DNA of 64,000 bases, from assembly GCF_000745475.1 (NCBI RefSeq), contig NZ_KN050692.1:699955-763954 (forward strand). Reading direction: 5' to 3'. Under the pieces are notes generated by a model, which saw only the letters and a program-made list of their open reading frames with translations, did no database searches and was not told the DNA's origin. A program made the translations under genes and the position numbers. Origin of the DNA: Allobosea sp. UNC402CLCol (GTDB lineage: Bacteria > Pseudomonadota > Alphaproteobacteria > Rhizobiales > Beijerinckiaceae). Shown here piece after piece: positions 2,778 through 8,301 of the stretch (positions are counted from its first letter, which is position 1; each line of letters opens with the position of its first letter).

Positions 2778-2855
2778 ACCAGGCCTAAAACGAACGGATT
2801 TATTAGCGCGACGATGAAGCCGATCGCCCCTCGCGGGCCGCATCAGGAGGCCGAG

Positions 2856-3062
2856 ATGGCGAAGAACACTGGTGATGGATTTCGACGGGGAGCGGTGAAC
2901 TCACGCACGCAGTTCCAGCGTGCTGATGGCCAATGGCAGAAGCGCGACGAGAGCACGGGGCACCTGATGGGCGTGAAGCAGTCGCCCGGCCCATGGAAGG
3001 GCGTGGCCAAGGAGCCGGACGGTCGAGACACCCCGAAGTCACCTGAGAACTGGGACAAGTAA
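2856..3062 (+). CDS. Small basic protein of unknown function, defence-island associated
   Basis: 68 residues. Start chosen at 2856 because AGGAGG lies at 2845-2850, close upstream; an in-frame ATG at 2814 has no such site. The protein begins MAKNTGDGFRRGAV and is polar and basic with no membrane segment or HTH. I recognise the style from small uncharacterised bacterial proteins that begin MAKNTGKG and are rich in KRDxSTGxFM, but I know no function. It ends 47 bases before the ImmA/IrrE start and is probably co-transcribed with it. It does not look like the HTH repressor that normally accompanies a CapP-type peptidase. Confidence 0.75.
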   Translation: MAKNTGDGFRRGAVNSRTQFQRADGQWQKRDESTGHLMGVKQSPGPWKGVAKEPDGRDTPKSPENWDK

Positions 3063-3109: not shown

Positions 3110-3784
3110 ATGACTGCCCATGCCTTCAGCGATAGGAAGGTGCCTTATCGCTCCGCACGCCAGATCAAAGGCACCGTTCGAGGTCTGCTCGATCGATGTG
3201 GGATGCAGGGGCTGCTTTCAATCGACATCGTTCGGCTGATCGAGGGATATCTCAAGCCCAAGCTGGAAGGCGGCCTCAAGATCGAATTGTATGATCAGGT
3301 CAAAGGCCAGCCGCCGGCTTACGTGTCGTACGGACCGCTGACGCTTCATGTGGATCGGGAGATTTGGGGAGACGCCAGGCAAGGCGAACCCGGTGCTCGA
3401 TACATCCTTGCCCATGAAGTCGGTCATATCGTCATGCATAAGCATCATTACCTCGGCTATTCGTTCGGCGAGGGCTCGCAGTTGAAGGCCCCGCCGGAAG
3501 AGGAAAGGGCCGAGTGGCAGGCCGACGTCTTCGGACACTTCCTGATGGTGACGGATAACGCCTTGATCGAAGATGCTCCGCTGCTTCACAAGGCAGCGGA
3601 CATAGGGGCGCCGATCTGGGTCTTGGCAAACGTTCAGCGATATGATGCCGCCCGCGACATCTTCGTCTTCATCGCCGGCCCGGCGTACGCCGGCGACCCC
3701 TGTGGTGGTTGCGGGAACTTCAGCCTTTCGCATCAGGGCGTCGAGTTGAAATGCGAGACCTGCGGGTGGAAGGTCGGCGTTTAG
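3110..3784 (+). CDS. ImmA/IrrE-family zinc metallopeptidase with a C-terminal NrdJ-like zinc ribbon
   Basis: 224 residues from the ATG at 3110, which has AAGGGA at 3099-3104; a TTG at 3077 is possible but poorer. Seen: HEVGH at residues 102-106 as the zinc and catalytic motif, then AEWQADVFGHFL, which supplies the usual third ligand region. ImmA/IrrE proteins cleave or relieve HTH repressors, and a relative (CapP) with its repressor CapH controls some CBASS operons. Here no HTH domain is fused and none is adjacent. Unusual: residues 196-219 form a zinc ribbon (C198, C201, C215, C218) that matches the C-terminus of the neighbouring NrdJ (pattern GDxCGxCGNF...LKCxTCG). The role of the ribbon is unknown; substrate recognition is one possibility. 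Confidence 0.88.
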   Translation: MTAHAFSDRKVPYRSARQIKGTVRGLLDRCGMQGLLSIDIVRLIEGYLKPKLEGGLKIELYDQVKGQPPAYVSYGPLTLHVDREIWGDARQGEPGARYILAHEVGHIVMHKHHYLGYSFGEGSQLKAPPEEERAEWQADVFGHFLMVTDNALIEDAPLLHKAADIGAPIWVLANVQRYDAARDIFVFIAGPAYAGDPCGGCGNFSLSHQGVELKCETCGWKVGV

Positions 3785-3820
3785 AGAGCCGAACCCGGTG
3801 ATTCGAGCCCCAACCGAAAC

Positions 3821-4762
3821 ATGGACGCGCCAACACACCCCCGAGAACTGTCGAGCATGCTGGTTCAATTGGGGGGCAATCGCTGGCTCGACGCGTCATT
3901 CGTTGACAATGCGATCTGCCGGAGTTGCCCCGTTCCATTGCAACCCGGTATCCGGCTCATCATCAGGATATCCCAGAACAGCAGCCTGTTGATCGACGCG
4001 GTCGTCCGGCTTCTCGCGTACGGGAACCAGCTCGCCGAGCGTGGCGTGCTGGTGACGATCGACTTCGAGGGCGGCCTGGAAAAGACCATGGGCTATCTTG
4101 ATCGGGTCGGCTTCTTCGATCACCTCGATGACCGCGTGACGGTCCTGCCCGCCCGCCCCGAGGTGTCTGGGGCCCTGATGTTCGGCGGCGGCAATGACGG
4201 CCTAGTGGAGATCGGAGCGGTCCGGAGCGGCATCGATCGCTTGCCGTTGCTCGATCGATTGGTGGAAGCGGTCCGCATCTCGTGTTCGGGGAGGTCGGAC
4301 TTCGCCGCGTTCGAAGACGCGATGTCGACGATCCTTTCCGAGCTGATCGACAACGTCTACGAGCACGGAGGCGCGTCGGCCACGGGTCATGCAGCTCTCC
4401 AACGCTACAGTGGAAGCAAGTCCGTGCGCGTCGTGGTTTCGGATGACGGTGACGGACTGATGCAGACGATCCGCCCTGCCCTGGGTCGGCGCGATCCGCG
4501 CTTCATCTCTCTCGGGGACGCCGACCTGCTCATCGAGATGTTCAGGGACGGGCTGTCGCGCATCGACGACCGCAAGCGCGGCAACGGGCTGAAGGGATGT
4601 GCGGCGAAAGCGATACGCTTCAACGCGAAGCTCGAAGTCCGCCTGGCGAGCCAGCGTGTGTCGCTCGTTCCCGTCGACGGGAGCTATGGCAACGCTTATA
4701 CGACGACCGGTCTTATGCCGCTGAAAGGCACGCACATCGCTTTTGTCCTCCCACTTGTTTAA
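3821..4762 (+). CDS. GHKL-fold ATP-binding protein, partner of the downstream STAS-like protein
   Basis: 313 residues. The C-terminal half is a histidine-kinase-like ATPase: N box ILSELIDNVYEHG (171-183), G1 box SDDGDG (207-212) and G2 box RGNGLKG (253-259). There is no phospho-acceptor His domain, receiver domain or membrane segment. The N-terminal half (about 45-115) has alternating hydrophobic strands and a YLDRVGFFDHL stretch, like the STAS-type domains seen in soluble ATP-binding proteins paired with DUF4325 proteins. It lies 36 bases after the ImmA/IrrE gene and 45 bases before the STAS-like gene on the same strand. By analogy with SpoIIAB/RsbW it may bind or phosphorylate its STAS partner (inference). 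The start has no clear ribosome-binding site; ATG at 3857 is an alternative. Confidence 0.85.
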   Translation: MDAPTHPRELSSMLVQLGGNRWLDASFVDNAICRSCPVPLQPGIRLIIRISQNSSLLIDAVVRLLAYGNQLAERGVLVTIDFEGGLEKTMGYLDRVGFFDHLDDRVTVLPARPEVSGALMFGGGNDGLVEIGAVRSGIDRLPLLDRLVEAVRISCSGRSDFAAFEDAMSTILSELIDNVYEHGGASATGHAALQRYSGSKSVRVVVSDDGDGLMQTIRPALGRRDPRFISLGDADLLIEMFRDGLSRIDDRKRGNGLKGCAAKAIRFNAKLEVRLASQRVSLVPVDGSYGNAYTTTGLMPLKGTHIAFVLPLV

Positions 4763-4784
4763 TATTGGTCACGCTGCTTAAATG

Positions 4785-4818
4785 ATTCGGATGATCCAGG
4801 TGCCCCAATGATCCGAAT
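4785..4818. promoter_or_regulatory. 8-bp inverted repeat spanning the start codon of the STAS-like gene
   Basis: ATTCGGAT (4785-4792) and ATCCGAAT (4811-4818) are exact reverse complements 18 bases apart, with the ATG at 4808 in the loop. In mRNA this could hide the start codon; in DNA it could be an operator. Either role is inference. Confidence 0.35.
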
Positions 4819-5341
4819 AGTCGATCTCATGCCCCGCCCCGAGGGGTGGGGACGAGCGATGGGTCGAGAGGTTTTTACGAAACTCCTCGACCAAGTCGAT
4901 CGCAATCCGGACCAGACCGTTTTCGCCATCTCTTTCGCTGGCGTGAAGCGCGTCGATTTCTCGTTCTCGTCGGAAACGGTCGTCGAGCTCGCGCGCCGGT
5001 TCCGGGGACGCAAGGGTTTTTATCTGCTCGACATCGGTGTTCCCGAGATAGAGGAGAACGTCGACGCCGCGGCTTTGCGGGTCGATCAGCCCCTGCTCGT
5101 TGTAGATGCAAAAGGTCAACATTTCATAGGCTTGGAGCCGACCGTTGGCACGAAGGAAGCACTAGCGATCGTTGTCGCCCGCCCCCAGGCGAGAGCATCG
5201 GACATAGCCGAGGCGATCCAGGTCTCGGTCGCCAACGCTTCCATGAAGCTGAAGCAGCTCTGGAATACGGGCTTCCTTCTCCGGAGGGAATCCGTCGCGG
5301 ACACCGGCGGCGTCGAATTCGTCTACCACCGGATCGCATAA
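4808..5341 (+). CDS. STAS-like (DUF4325-type) protein with a C-terminal winged-helix domain
   Basis: 177 residues. Residues 1-108 resemble the DUF4325 STAS-like fold: alternating strands and helices, with FSFSSE at 51-56 at the position of the conserved 'DFS..FADE' element. Residues 115-177 look like a winged helix: helix RASDIAEAI (129-137), a recognition helix (about 140-157) and a wing ending VEFVYHRI. Together with the GHKL ATPase just upstream this makes a partner-switch pair whose output could be DNA binding. The gene ends 109 bases before the CD-NTase start, and the gap holds a promoter with an inverted repeat. Control of the CBASS operon is therefore a reasonable hypothesis, not a demonstrated fact. 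No RNA-binding or enzymatic motif is seen. Confidence 0.8.
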   Translation: MIRIVDLMPRPEGWGRAMGREVFTKLLDQVDRNPDQTVFAISFAGVKRVDFSFSSETVVELARRFRGRKGFYLLDIGVPEIEENVDAAALRVDQPLLVVDAKGQHFIGLEPTVGTKEALAIVVARPQARASDIAEAIQVSVANASMKLKQLWNTGFLLRRESVADTGGVEFVYHRIA

Positions 5342-5370
5342 CCCCTTCCCCGCAAAAGGTTAACCAGATC

Positions 5371-5413
5371 TTGACATCGTTGTTATGATCACCCATAAAT
5401 GCAATAATTTATG
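5371..5413 (+). promoter_or_regulatory. Promoter of the CBASS operon with an overlapping inverted repeat
   Basis: TTGACA (5371-5376) is a consensus -35. After 17 bases comes CATAAA (5394-5399) as -10. The -10 lies inside an inverted repeat, CATAAAT (5394-5400) and ATTTATG (5407-5413), 6 bases apart, so a bound dimer would block RNA polymerase. The CD-NTase start is 38 bases further on. Confidence 0.6.
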
Positions 5414-5450
5414 CAGATTGGCGATCGAGCCAAAATCGGTGGGGAACATC

Positions 5451-6650
5451 ATGATCGTCGATCAGCGTTCGGTTTTCCGGAAGGCCTATCTCGTCAACCT
5501 TCTCACGCGGCTTTGCGCAGAGCTCGACATTCCCGAAGGGCGCCTCCGTCAGGCGCAGGAGCGCTATGAAGGCGCCGCGGAGTGGCTCGCGGCCGGGGAA
5601 CACTTCCTGCTCCGGGAGCTTTCGATCTACTTGCAAGGGTCGACCGCGCTGGGCACGTCGGTTAAGCCGATCGGGCGCAACGAGCACGATGTTGATCTCG
5701 TCGCGTTCATGCCGGCCGGCAGGACCGACCTCACTCCGGCTTTCGTCAAGGCGGTCGTCGGAGACCGCCTCAAGGCGAACGCCATCTATGCAAGGCTGCT
5801 GGAGGAGAAGTGCCGCTGCTGGCGTCTCGTCTATGCCAATGAGTTCCATCTCGACATCACCCCGGCGATCCTCAACTCGCGCTGCCGCGATGGTGGCGAA
5901 TTTGTTCCGGACCGGTCGTTACGCGAGTGGAAGGGGAGCAATCCCCGCGGCTATCGCCGCGCCTTCGAGCGGCGCGCGGCCCTGGTACCTCGCTTGCGCG
6001 TCACCAGGGCCTTCGACGACTCCGCCCACGCCCGGGCGGACATCGAGCCGTTCCCGACGACGGCCAGCGGTCGCAACCTCCTGTGCAATATCGTTCAGGT
6101 CGCGAAGCGGCACCGCGACGTCCATTTCGATGGTCGCGACCCCGCCCTGACGCCGATCTCGGTGATCCTGACCACGTTGTTGGCATGGAGCTACGAGGCC
6201 TGCGTCGCGGCGGCGGTCTACGACACCGAGTTCGACCTGATGATCGCGGTCCTGCGCCGCATGCCGGACTTCATCCGGACCACGTTGCCGGACGGATCGC
6301 CCGGCTACTGGATCCCGAACGAGACGACCCTCGACGAGAACTTCGCCGAACGCTGGAACGACGACCCTCGGCGGGCGCGGGCCTTCTACACCTGGCACAC
6401 CAAGGCGCTTGCCGACATGGAAGGGCTCGCGCTCACCGAGGGCACCGACCGCGTGCGGAACCATATGGAGGATGCCTTCGGCCCCCGCCCGGTGGAGCGG
6501 GCCTTCGCCACATTGGACCGGGAGGTCGCCACCGCGCGCGGCTCGGGCGTGCTGCGAGTGGCTCCGTTGGTCGGAGTGACGACCGCCCCTGCGGTTGCTG
6601 CGGCAGTCCCCGTGCGAGCCAACACGTTCTTCGGGCGGGACTGCCGTTGA
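5451..6650 (+). CDS. CBASS cGAS/DncV-like nucleotidyltransferase (CD-NTase, CdnG-like)
   Basis: 399 residues from the ATG at 5451, which has GGTGGGGA upstream; an ATG at 5385 lies inside the promoter and is unlikely. Makes a cyclic oligonucleotide alarm signal on phage infection. Seen: the nucleotide-binding GS at residues 63-64 in QGSTALGTS, and the metal-binding triad D80 and D82 (HDVDLV) with D135 (HLDITPA). Assignment to clade G rests on the Cap5-type partner, as described for the Asticcacaulis CdnG-Cap5 system that uses 3',2'-cGAMP; the product here is not proven. The C-terminus reads NTFFGRDCR and lacks the terminal Gly expected when an E2 conjugates the enzyme. It overlaps the next gene by 4 bases. 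Confidence 0.92.
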   Translation: MIVDQRSVFRKAYLVNLLTRLCAELDIPEGRLRQAQERYEGAAEWLAAGEHFLLRELSIYLQGSTALGTSVKPIGRNEHDVDLVAFMPAGRTDLTPAFVKAVVGDRLKANAIYARLLEEKCRCWRLVYANEFHLDITPAILNSRCRDGGEFVPDRSLREWKGSNPRGYRRAFERRAALVPRLRVTRAFDDSAHARADIEPFPTTASGRNLLCNIVQVAKRHRDVHFDGRDPALTPISVILTTLLAWSYEACVAAAVYDTEFDLMIAVLRRMPDFIRTTLPDGSPGYWIPNETTLDENFAERWNDDPRRARAFYTWHTKALADMEGLALTEGTDRVRNHMEDAFGPRPVERAFATLDREVATARGSGVLRVAPLVGVTTAPAVAAAVPVRANTFFGRDCR

Positions 6651-7141
6651 GCATCCCCGTCCATCCCCGCGAGCTCACCCTGTCGCAGCAACTCGTGAAC
6701 CTGCGCTCGAACCCGCTGAGCGTAGGCGACGGCGGGATTGCCGGAGGGGAATTGGTCTGGCGCTTCAGGGCCTCCCCTTCGCCCGTCTCGCGCGTCTACG
6801 ATCTCCGACTGACTTATGTGGAAGCGGAAGCGCCCAAGATTTTCGTCGATGAGCCTGACCTGACATTGCTCGCGAACGGGGTTCGCATCCCGCATCTCTA
6901 CTCGGAGCGCCCGGCCCGCCTCTGCCTGTACCTGCCCGAAGCCTATGAATGGCGTTCCAGCATGTTGCTCGACCGCACGATGGTGCCGTGGGCGATCCTG
7001 TGGCTCTGGTATTTCGAGGACTGGCTCGCGACTGGTGAATGGCGCGGCGGAGGGGTCCATGTGTCGGAGGGCGAGCCGGGCGTGGTTGGCCGCCATATTC
7101 GGCGGGCCCTTGTTGCGAAGCGCCGGACGGAGGCTGCATAG
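6647..7141 (+). CDS. CBASS E2-like conjugating protein (type II-short, no E1)
   Basis: 164 residues from a TTG at 6647 that overlaps the CD-NTase stop. Earlier in-frame codons lie inside the CD-NTase gene. The C-terminal half carries the signature I associate with the short CBASS E2 proteins: RLCLYLP, then [17 protein letters not shown] and EWRGGG. Cys93 in RLCLYLP is the only cysteine and is the candidate catalytic residue. In type II-short CBASS the E2 primes or regulates the CD-NTase by a ubiquitin-like reaction. No E1 or JAB gene is present here. It is followed 2 bases later by the effector, so the three genes form one translationally coupled operon. Confidence 0.85.
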
Positions 7142-7143
7142 CT

Positions 7144-8301
7144 ATGGCCGGAACGAAAATCGATCCGAAGGTCCAGTACGCGCTGTGGGCAAGATCGGCC
7201 GGGCGTTGCCAGTATCGTGGCTGCAACGAGAGCCAGGTCGGGGATCTGCTCGCCGGGAAGACGATGGGCAAGTTCGGCTTCGTCGCCCATGTCATCGGCG
7301 ACGAACCGAAGGGCAAGACCGGCAAGGGCGGGCCGCGCTACGATCCGGTTCGTTCGGCAGCTCTCGCGGGCGACATCCGGAACCTGATGCTGCTCTGCGG
7401 CCGGCACCACAAGCTCGTGGACGTCGACGCCAAGGACGATCATCCCGAAGCGGTCCTGCTCGCCATGAAGGATGAGCATGAGCGGCGGATCGAGATCCAG
7501 ACCTCGATTCTGCCTGATCGTGCCTCGCACGTGTTGAGGTTCGGTGCCAACATCGGTTCGAACCAGGCGCTGGTATCCCGGCAGGACATCTTCGATGCAA
7601 TGATTCCCGAGAGGTACCCGGACAACGACGGGCGTCCCATCGACCTCGACATGCCGGGCTTTTCGTTTGAGGACACCGAGCCCGCCTATTGGCATGGACT
7701 GCAATCCAACATGCGTCGCCAGTTCGCCGATCAGGTCAGGGGACGCATCGAGCGGCAGGAGATCCGCCATCTCAGCGTGTTCGCCCTCGCCCCGATGCCG
7801 CTGCTGATCGAGCTCGGCCGGATGCTCGGCGAGATCGTCAAGGTTTCCGTCTACCAGCGACACCGCGAGCCGGAGACATGGAAGTGGCAGTCGGATAAGT
7901 CGCCCATCGAGTTCGTTATCGGTGAGCCGACCGCTGCCACAGGGACAACGGTGGCCTTGAAGCTCGGTGTCAGCGCCACCGTGAACGACGAACGCATTGA
8001 GGCGGTCCTCGGCGCAAGCATACCGATCTGGTCCGTCACGGCGGCCGCGCCCGGGAACGACGTCATGCGGCGCCCGGAGGATCTTGCCGCCTATCGGAAA
8101 AACCTCCGGGGCTTGTACGACCGCATCAAGGCCGTTCATGGCGAGAATGCCATGATTCATGTCTTTCCAGCGGTCCCTGTATCCGTTGCGGTCGAAACCG
8201 GGCGCGTGTGGACGCCCAAAGCGGACCTGCCGCTGCTGATTTATGACCAAAACCGCAAGAGCGGTGGCTTCTTTCCCGCAGTCGAGATCAGACACGTCTG
8301 A
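7144..8301 (+). CDS. cap5: CBASS effector, HNH endonuclease-SAVED fusion (Cap5 type)
   Basis: 385 residues. GGAGG lies at the proper distance before the ATG. The N-terminal domain is an HNH nuclease with zinc ligands in CQYRGC (C22, C27), H49 in AHVIG, N80 and the H88-H89 pair in CGRHHKLVD. From about residue 170 the sequence is compatible with a SAVED domain, which binds the cyclic nucleotide and triggers oligomerisation and DNA cleavage in the Cap5 family, killing the infected cell. It is the last gene of the operon and converges on the next operon; 82 bases separate the two stops. Confidence 0.9.

What the first reader, a model, noticed from the sequence alone, without database searches (positions are those of the whole stretch)
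3821..5341. Partner-switch pair whose STAS-like member carries a DNA-binding domain
The GHKL protein has complete N, G1 and G2 boxes but no kinase relay parts, as in SpoIIAB/RsbW. The STAS-like protein has, in place of a simple antagonist fold, a C-terminal winged helix (residues about 115-177). A switch that ends directly in DNA binding, without a sigma factor, would be a different wiring from known partner-switch systems.
Basis: partly seen in the sequence, partly recalled or inferred. Interest (0 to 1): 0.75.

Follow-up and report, generated by a model that had tools for sequence, protein, structure and literature searches.

The report
CapK–CapS kinase–repressor switch controlling CBASS immunity
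Two neighbouring bacterial genes encode a kinase and a DNA-binding repressor that very probably keep the adjacent anti-phage suicide system switched off until DNA damage is sensed; this kind of switch was described in 2026, and this copy belongs to a separate branch whose kinase lacks one domain.

Summary
In detail: 3821-4762 encodes a GHKL protein, 4808-5341 a STAS domain followed by a winged helix (AlphaFold2 pLDDT 95.5). It is a CapK/CapS pair, a system published in June 2026 (PMC13373217): ssDNA-activated CapK phosphorylates the repressor CapS and the immune operon is derepressed. Solved CapS structures match the window protein over both domains (E 1e-30). The phospho-serine (S52), DNA-contact residues (N143, K149, G167, G168), ssDNA-contact tryptophan (W22) and kinase asparagine (N178) are present. 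An operator profile built only from other loci has its two best matches in 64 kb in the pair's two intergenic regions. So the 'switch that ends directly in DNA binding' is real but not a new wiring. Additional here: a well-supported clade of five CapS whose four complete CapK partners lack the N-terminal HTH; effectors swapped behind related pairs; and wide operator spacing upstream of capS commoner than the published narrow one. The mechanism in this organism is inferred, not tested.

The parts
3821..4762 (+). capK-like gene: STAS-like N-terminal domain plus GHKL kinase domain, 313 aa; lacks the N-terminal HTH of described CapK
   Evidence: Pfam HATPase_c 8.9e-7; AF2 pLDDT 88.4; W22 and N178 correspond to E. 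roggenkampii CapK W68 and N218; only 36 bases separate it from the preceding ORF
4808..5341 (+). capS-like gene: STAS domain (about 1-107) plus winged helix (about 109-177), 177 aa
   Evidence: phmmer to PDB 9z71 E 1.1e-30 and 9z72/9z73 E 7.5e-30; AF2 pLDDT 95.5; structure comparison
4772..4801 (.). [quoted passage not shown]
   Evidence: best of all positions in the 64 kb window for the profile from other loci (12.6 bits; 0.02 expected); second best for the clade profile
5389..5418 (.). predicted CapS operator before the CBASS operon: ATAA-N10-TTAT, right flank GCAGA; overlaps the -10
   Evidence: second best in 64 kb for the general profile (4.4 bits; 0.41 expected); best for the clade profile (21.1 bits; none in 100 simulated windows)
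5360..5368 (+). single half-site TTAACCAGA next to the -35
   Evidence: exact half-site of the family motif; lies in the third-ranked profile position 5340-5369, whose score (-1.3) is practically tied with unrelated places; weak evidence
5371..5399 (+). likely promoter of the CBASS operon: TTGACA, 17-base spacer, CATAAA
   Evidence: positions; same layout in the closest relative L095 (TTGACG-17-CATAAA); the simple promoter scan did not list this pair of hexamers but two others nearby
5451..6650 (+). CD-NTase (CBASS nucleotide cyclase), start taken at 5451
   Evidence: PADLOC Cyclase 2e-108, Pfam SMODS 1.4e-10
6647..7141 (+). E2-like protein of the CBASS operon
   Evidence: PADLOC E2 6.2e-52
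7144..8301 (+). HNH-SAVED effector nuclease (Cap5-like)
   Evidence: PADLOC endonuclease effector 4.1e-154; Pfam SAVED 2.7e-54

Best explanation
The pair is a CapK/CapS regulatory module of the CBASS operon 5451-8301. CapS is a dimeric repressor that binds palindromic operators at 4772-4801 (its own promoter) and 5389-5418 (the -10 of the CBASS promoter). When single-stranded DNA from damage or phage infection binds CapK (tryptophan W22), CapK uses ATP to phosphorylate CapS at serine 52; the CapS dimer falls apart, leaves the DNA, and both capS and CBASS are derepressed. Shown here: homology, domain architecture, the key residues, gene order and operator-like sites. Inferred from the experimentally studied Enterobacter and Vibrio pairs: phosphorylation, ssDNA sensing, dimer dissociation and derepression.
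For: CapS matches the solved CapS structures over residues 12-174 (9z71, E 1.1e-30) and 9-176 (9z72/9z73, E 7.5e-30). Published key residues map onto S52, N143, K149, G167, G168 (E. roggenkampii numbering checked), all invariant in 35 aligned CapS; in a wider set of 74 rows S52 is S in 70, T in L008, A in L009, gap in 2. CapK W22 is W in 63 of 63 rows that reach the column (5 of 68 do not), and N178 is N in 68 of 68. A CapK-like gene was found in 67 of 71 loci, on the same strand before capS. Profile scans put their two best positions of the 64 kb in the two intergenic regions of the pair. Behind related pairs lie CBASS, ubiquitin-like, Thoeris and other immune operons. Paper.
Against: No experiment exists for this organism. 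Half-sites in the window deviate from the published TTAA (TTAA/TGAT and ATAA/TTAT); under a strict criterion (both halves positive, sum at least 6) the window shows no pair at spacing 10 in either intergenic region, while L095, L091 and L002 do. By score alone the 5389 site is not rare for the general profile (0.41 expected per 64 kb), and 2 of 100 simulated windows reached the score of the best site. The clade member L094 has a match between its capK and capS (13.2 bits at 403) but none after capS. The narrow palindrome described in Enterobacter is absent. CapK is only 29% identical to E. roggenkampii CapK and lacks the HTH. The six sites of the clade profile were themselves picked with the general profile.
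Confidence: 0.93

Rival explanations
1. A VapK/VapS-like pair: an HTH-less kinase with a STAS antitoxin that controls a PIN toxin by protein contact instead of transcription.
For: The window kinase lacks the N-terminal HTH, like VapK in the paper.
Against: The STAS protein carries a full winged helix, whereas VapS has only a short C-terminal region; none of the six proteins of 3110-8301 given to Pfam is a PIN domain; the ssDNA residue is W as in CapK, not F as in VapK; operator-like sites are present.
Confidence: 0.03
2. A classical partner switch: the GHKL protein holds a sigma factor and the STAS protein releases it.
For: Fold resemblance of CapS and CapK to SpoIIAA and SpoIIAB (paper) and of the window protein to a stressosome chain.
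Against: No sigma factor among the six proteins of 3110-8301; conserved DNA-contact residues and operator-like sites in the module itself.
Confidence: 0.02
3. The same proteins, but with another input or the opposite sign: CapS acts as activator, or CapK senses something other than ssDNA in this HTH-less clade.
For: CapK is divergent (29% identity to E. roggenkampii CapK), lacks the HTH, and the operator at 5389-5418 has altered half-sites.
Against: The predicted operator covers the likely -10, as expected for a repressor; W22 is kept; deleting the HTH of E. roggenkampii CapK had no effect on signalling (paper).
Confidence: 0.05

Closest known systems
CapK + CapS (Chambers et al., EMBO J 2026, PMC13373217)
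   Same: Gene order, STAS-GHKL kinase plus STAS-wHTH repressor, phospho-serine, DNA-contact residues, ssDNA-contact tryptophan, 10-base operator spacing, immune operon downstream.
   Different: Window CapK lacks the N-terminal HTH; both predicted operators have the wide spacing; half-sites deviate from TTAA.
VapKSC (same paper)
   Same: HTH-less STAS-GHKL kinase and STAS substrate.
   Different: Window STAS protein has a wHTH, no PIN toxin among the module's genes, W instead of F at the ssDNA position.
CapW/BrxR and CapH+CapP
   Same: DNA-damage-responsive regulators next to CBASS and other immune operons (as described in the paper).
   Different: Different proteins: a WYL regulator, or an HTH repressor with a peptidase; PADLOC listed no such model for the pair.
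SpoIIAB/SpoIIAA, RsbW/RsbV (compared in the paper; details recalled)
   Same: GHKL serine kinase phosphorylating a STAS domain.
   Different: They act on sigma factors; no DNA-binding domain on the STAS protein.

Membership tests
CapK/CapS | STAS domain followed by wHTH in the substrate protein | tested here: met
   AF2 model and structure comparison; PDB 9z71/9z72 homology over both domains
CapK/CapS | Conserved phospho-acceptor serine (E. roggenkampii CapS S54) | tested here: met
   S52; invariant in 35 aligned CapS
CapK/CapS | wHTH DNA-contact residues N145, K151, G169, G170 | tested here: met
   N143, K149, G167, G168
CapK/CapS | CapK GHKL domain with active-site asparagine (N218) and ssDNA-contact tryptophan (W68) | tested here: met
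   N178 and W22 in alignment with E. roggenkampii CapK
CapK/CapS | N-terminal HTH on CapK | tested here: not met
   21 residues before W22 versus 45 or more in 58 of 68 rows; no room upstream. The authors found the HTH dispensable, so I treat it as a variable feature
CapK/CapS | capS directly follows capK, immune operon downstream | tested here: met
CapK/CapS | Wide palindrome (TTAA-N10-TTAA) before the downstream operon | tested here: inconclusive
   Spacing and right flank fit and the site ranks second and first in 64 kb for two profiles, but the half-sites are ATAA/TTAT and a strict half-site test fails
CapK/CapS | Narrow palindrome (TTAA-N-TTAA) before capS | tested here: not met
   Absent in the window; a wide-spaced site is there instead. 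Not general: exact narrow site in 19 of 68 non-clade loci, near-copies included
CapK/CapS | ssDNA-activated phosphorylation, dimer dissociation, derepression on DNA damage | not testable with these tools
   needs bench work
VapKSC | PIN-domain toxin gene in the operon | tested here: not met
   none of the six proteins of 3110-8301 given to Pfam matches a PIN family
VapKSC | STAS protein with short C-terminal region instead of wHTH | tested here: not met
   full wHTH at about 109-177
Anti-sigma/anti-anti-sigma partner switch (SpoIIAB/AA type) | A sigma factor as the controlled partner | tested here: inconclusive
   no sigma factor among the six proteins examined; the rest of the window and genome was not tested
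DUF4325 STAS-like proteins (PF14213) | match to the Pfam model | tested here: not met
   not listed for the window protein at E 1 and no match in the own genome at E 0.001
CBASS (downstream operon) | CD-NTase with effector | tested here: met

The most novel reading that the evidence does not exclude
The window represents a distinct branch of the CapK/CapS family (five CapS, 100/100 support) whose kinase is naturally HTH-less and whose CapS reads a changed half-site at the wide spacing at both promoters. Together with the spacing survey this suggests that the interface-1 CapS dimer on wide sites, not the narrow palindrome, is the general operator architecture, and that the CapK HTH is an accessory gained or lost once.
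Probability: 0.4. Interest if true: 0.45.

Novelty: new member of a known kind. Interest (0 to 1): 0.4.

Why it matters
A kinase-repressor pair that converts ssDNA into transcription of a cell-killing immune operon explains how a dangerous defence system can be kept silent and poised. This copy shows that the module exists without the kinase's HTH and still sits in front of exchangeable immune operons: HNH-SAVED CBASS in the window, phospholipase CBASS in L095 and L091, a ubiquitin-like operon in L002. It offers a natural test of what the CapK HTH and the two operator spacings are for. The general finding is already in print, so the added value is moderate.

Tried and rejected
DUF4325 (PF14213), my first guess for the STAS part, gave no match. 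PADLOC's DrmA match to the GHKL protein (3.6e-5) was set aside as a shared ATPase fold. The weak PADLOC capP match of the upstream peptidase (2.1e-6, residues 89-142) suggested a CapH/CapP regulator; I did not count it as part of the module because the congener G005, which has no CapS match anywhere, carries the same peptidase and small protein behind nrdJ; the G005 contig ends shortly after the peptidase, and I made no search for a capH gene. Searching genome contigs with the window CapS alone found no relative. PDB sequence search with the window CapK found nothing at E 0.01. The phage records were searched only with the L003 CapS: no match. No STAS structure appears in Foldseek's 50 listed rows; the second look lists a stressosome chain and a sulfate-transporter chain. 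My greedy ORF caller missed the window capS (it kept an overlapping frame), so the window anchor was set by hand. Operon classes rest on these ORF calls and on single-linkage clusters labelled from a few representatives (L003, L006, L043, L051 and the window); 15 of 71 loci were not classed by cluster, and L004, L008, L009, L048, L049, L064, L086, L089, L090 stayed unexplained or are cut by contig ends. The locus counts include near-identical copies unless 'distinct' is said. Downstream profile scores of the loci that gave the profile are circular and are not used as evidence.

Full report
Pfam places a GHKL ATPase at residues 166-312 of the first (8.9e-7) and a MarR-type winged helix at residues 119-165 of the second (1.5e-4, just below Pfam's own cut-off). 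AlphaFold2 on an alignment of the window protein with 34 relatives predicts the second protein with mean pLDDT 95.5; residues 113-174 have the helix-strand-helix-helix-strand-strand order of a winged helix. Foldseek and VIA-align 2 align residues about 109-177 to CadC, BlaI and MecI (some of them bound to DNA), and VIA-align 2 aligns residues 1-105 to a stressosome chain (7b0u, Z 9.1, rmsd 3.1, 95 residues), which I know to be a STAS domain. The GHKL protein is predicted at pLDDT 88.4, with a mixed alpha/beta domain (12-109) in front of the GHKL domain; Foldseek lists CheA, WalK and GyrB type ATPases for it, one below E 0.001.

The surroundings change the picture. The three genes that follow are a CD-NTase (PADLOC 2e-108), an E2-like protein (6.2e-52) and an HNH-SAVED nuclease (4.1e-154), that is, a CBASS operon; I would call it short type II from memory.

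Relatives of CapS were gathered from plasmids (43 records), bacterial genomes (60 loci), viral contigs (one locus each), a class-wide sample (2 convincing of 385 genomes, the window's own included; 17 further genomes with weak matches, E 1.3e-5 to 9.6e-4, nearly all in the winged helix only, were set aside) and an order-wide sample (2 of 397, own included). Among 61 near genomes only the window's own had it, so it is a rare and probably mobile acquisition; in 5 of 5 congeners examined, blastn finds nothing like window 2653-30000 after nrdJ in the stretch fetched (6.9-13 kb including the nrdJ end). A CapK-like gene was found in 67 of 71 loci; the exceptions are L045 and L087, where the contig ends, and L008 and L009, orphan copies on Pseudomonas megaplasmids. 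Those two orphans are the only rows in which the phospho-acceptor serine is replaced (T and A), which fits loss of the kinase input.

Behind the pairs lie, by my clustering of 71 loci (near-copies included), 36 ubiquitin-like/E1 operons, 17 with the window's cluster of CD-NTase (window included), 3 with a YegP-like gene, and 15 not classed by cluster. Of the 15, profile searches identify a CD-NTase with Cap15 (L080), ThsA with TIR proteins, i.e. Thoeris (L076), TIR plus caspase (L078), DUF4747 (L044) and an E1-like protein (L070). L011, also among the 15, is a short piece whose longer copy L091 shows a patatin effector (PADLOC 2.5e-100) followed by what I read by eye as cyclase, E1-E2 and JAB genes.

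The literature search then found the system: Chambers et al., EMBO J 2026, PMC13373217, the only paper of the held library with CBASS, GHKL and STAS together, with CapK, CapS and CBASS together, and in a third search. I read the abstract, the whole Results, the Discussion and the Bioinformatics section. They report 443 capKS pairs (231 Bub, 75 CBASS, 12 type IV Thoeris, 57 YegP and others), crystal structures of CapS, phosphorylation of CapS S54 by ssDNA-activated CapK, dimer dissociation and derepression on DNA damage, and VapKSC as a toxin-antitoxin relative.

Tests of membership. phmmer of the window CapS against PDB sequences returns 9z71 (E 1.1e-30, residues 12-174) and 9z72/9z73 (7.5e-30, residues 9-176). 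These entries bear no CapS name in the output; I identify them as the published structures because the printed 9z71 residues are those of the E. roggenkampii protein WP_001567865.1 named in the paper (L092). E. roggenkampii S54, N145, K151 and G169/G170 (positions checked) correspond to S52, N143, K149 and G167/G168, invariant in 35 aligned CapS. CapK W68 and N218 (checked) correspond to W22 and N178; W in 63 of 63 rows that reach the column, N in 68 of 68.

Operators. In 72 loci with at least 250 bases after capS, an exact TTAA-N10-TTAA lies there in 46 (0.7 expected from dinucleotide shuffles). A 30-base profile from these 65 sites contains none from the window or its clade. Scanned over the 64 kb window, its best position is 4772 (between capK and capS, 12.6 bits) and its second 5389 (between capS and the cyclase, 4.4 bits); the third, 5340 just after capS (-1.3), is practically tied with unrelated places. 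Expected numbers per 64 kb are 0.02, 0.41 and 2.9, and 2 of 100 simulated windows held a position as good as the best. So only the first is striking by score alone; it is the joint location that persuades. In control stretches of 120 bases from the loci, 6 of 1835 reach 12.5 bits and 62 reach 4.4. A second profile from six sites of the relatives L095, L091 and L002 ranks 5389 first (21.1 bits, none in 100 simulated windows) and 4772 second (17.6 bits, 0.03 expected), the next best being 10.7; those six sites had been picked with the first profile, but no window letter went into either. In the closest relative L095 the promoter layout is the same: TTGAC[AG], 17 bases, CATAAA, the -10 lying in the left half-site. 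Against this: the window half-sites are TTAA/TGAT and ATAA/TTAT; a stricter test that wants both halves positive finds no pair at spacing 10 in the window; and the clade member L094 has a match before capS (13.2 bits) but none after it.

What is additional to the paper. First, window, L095, L091, L002 and L094 form one CapS clade among 63 rows (100/100), and the four complete CapK of this clade (that of L094 is cut) have 10-42 residues before the tryptophan by my ORF calls (L002 is 313 aa as annotated), against 45 or more in 58 of 68 rows; of the other ten rows four are the clade, five do not reach the column and one is L033 with 41. In the window only 36 bases separate capK from the preceding gene, so a missed HTH is excluded. 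The paper's HTH deletion had no effect, so this clade is a natural counterpart; whether the authors' list already contains such members I could not check. Second, L095 carries the same type of cyclase (the same PADLOC model ranks first) and an E2 read by eye, but a phospholipase effector in place of HNH-SAVED: the effector is swapped behind related regulators. Third, upstream of capS, half-sites at spacing 10 occur in 46 of 51 distinct non-clade loci, at spacing 1 in 30 of 51 (29 have both, one has spacing 1 alone, 4 neither); in control stretches 8 and 6 of 1712. Other spacings also rise above the rest, notably 5 (23 loci), so the sites have inner repeats. Exact narrow TTAA-N-TTAA occurs in 19 of 68 loci and lies within the best wide match in 17 of them. 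This does not contradict the published binding data for one species, but it suggests that the wide spacing is the more general feature of that promoter. The half-site model came from downstream wide sites, which may favour this reading.

I file the pair as a CapK/CapS member with one variable feature absent (HTH) and operators that are predicted, not proven.

Noticed in passing
window 3110-3781: A zinc-peptidase-like protein (Pfam M78, 3.7e-4, below the curated cut-off) ends in the same cysteine-rich tail as the B12-dependent ribonucleotide reductase encoded just upstream (NCBIfam PRK07562 match at residues 192-223). Of 37 near genomes only congener G005 has a full-length relative, also behind nrdJ; the other matches are nearly all to the tail of long nrdJ-sized frames.
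   Followed up: partly
window 2814-3062: A small protein without a Pfam family is homologous (E down to 4.7e-13, 10 loci) to a small protein encoded after capS in CapK/CapS loci; in the window and in congener G005 it sits behind nrdJ instead.
   Followed up: partly
L008:7995-8567 and L009:7929-8513: Orphan CapS on Pseudomonas megaplasmids without CapK, with the phospho-serine replaced by T or A and no operator match downstream; neighbours are mostly hypothetical proteins.
   Followed up: partly
L076:9846-12465: A Thoeris operon with a SIR2-STALD ThsA and two TIR proteins behind CapK/CapS; the paper's Results name type IV Thoeris.
   Followed up: partly
L034, L036, L038, L039, L041, L042: Gammaproteobacteria of five genera carry nearly identical CapS and the same CBASS gene clusters, followed by the same four extra genes (clusters C7-C10), which looks like a recently spread mobile island.
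   Followed up: no
L006:8781-9167: A YdjM-like membrane protein (Pfam 1.4e-14) stands between CapS and the SAVED/cyclase genes in L006; its cluster has 14 members.
   Followed up: no
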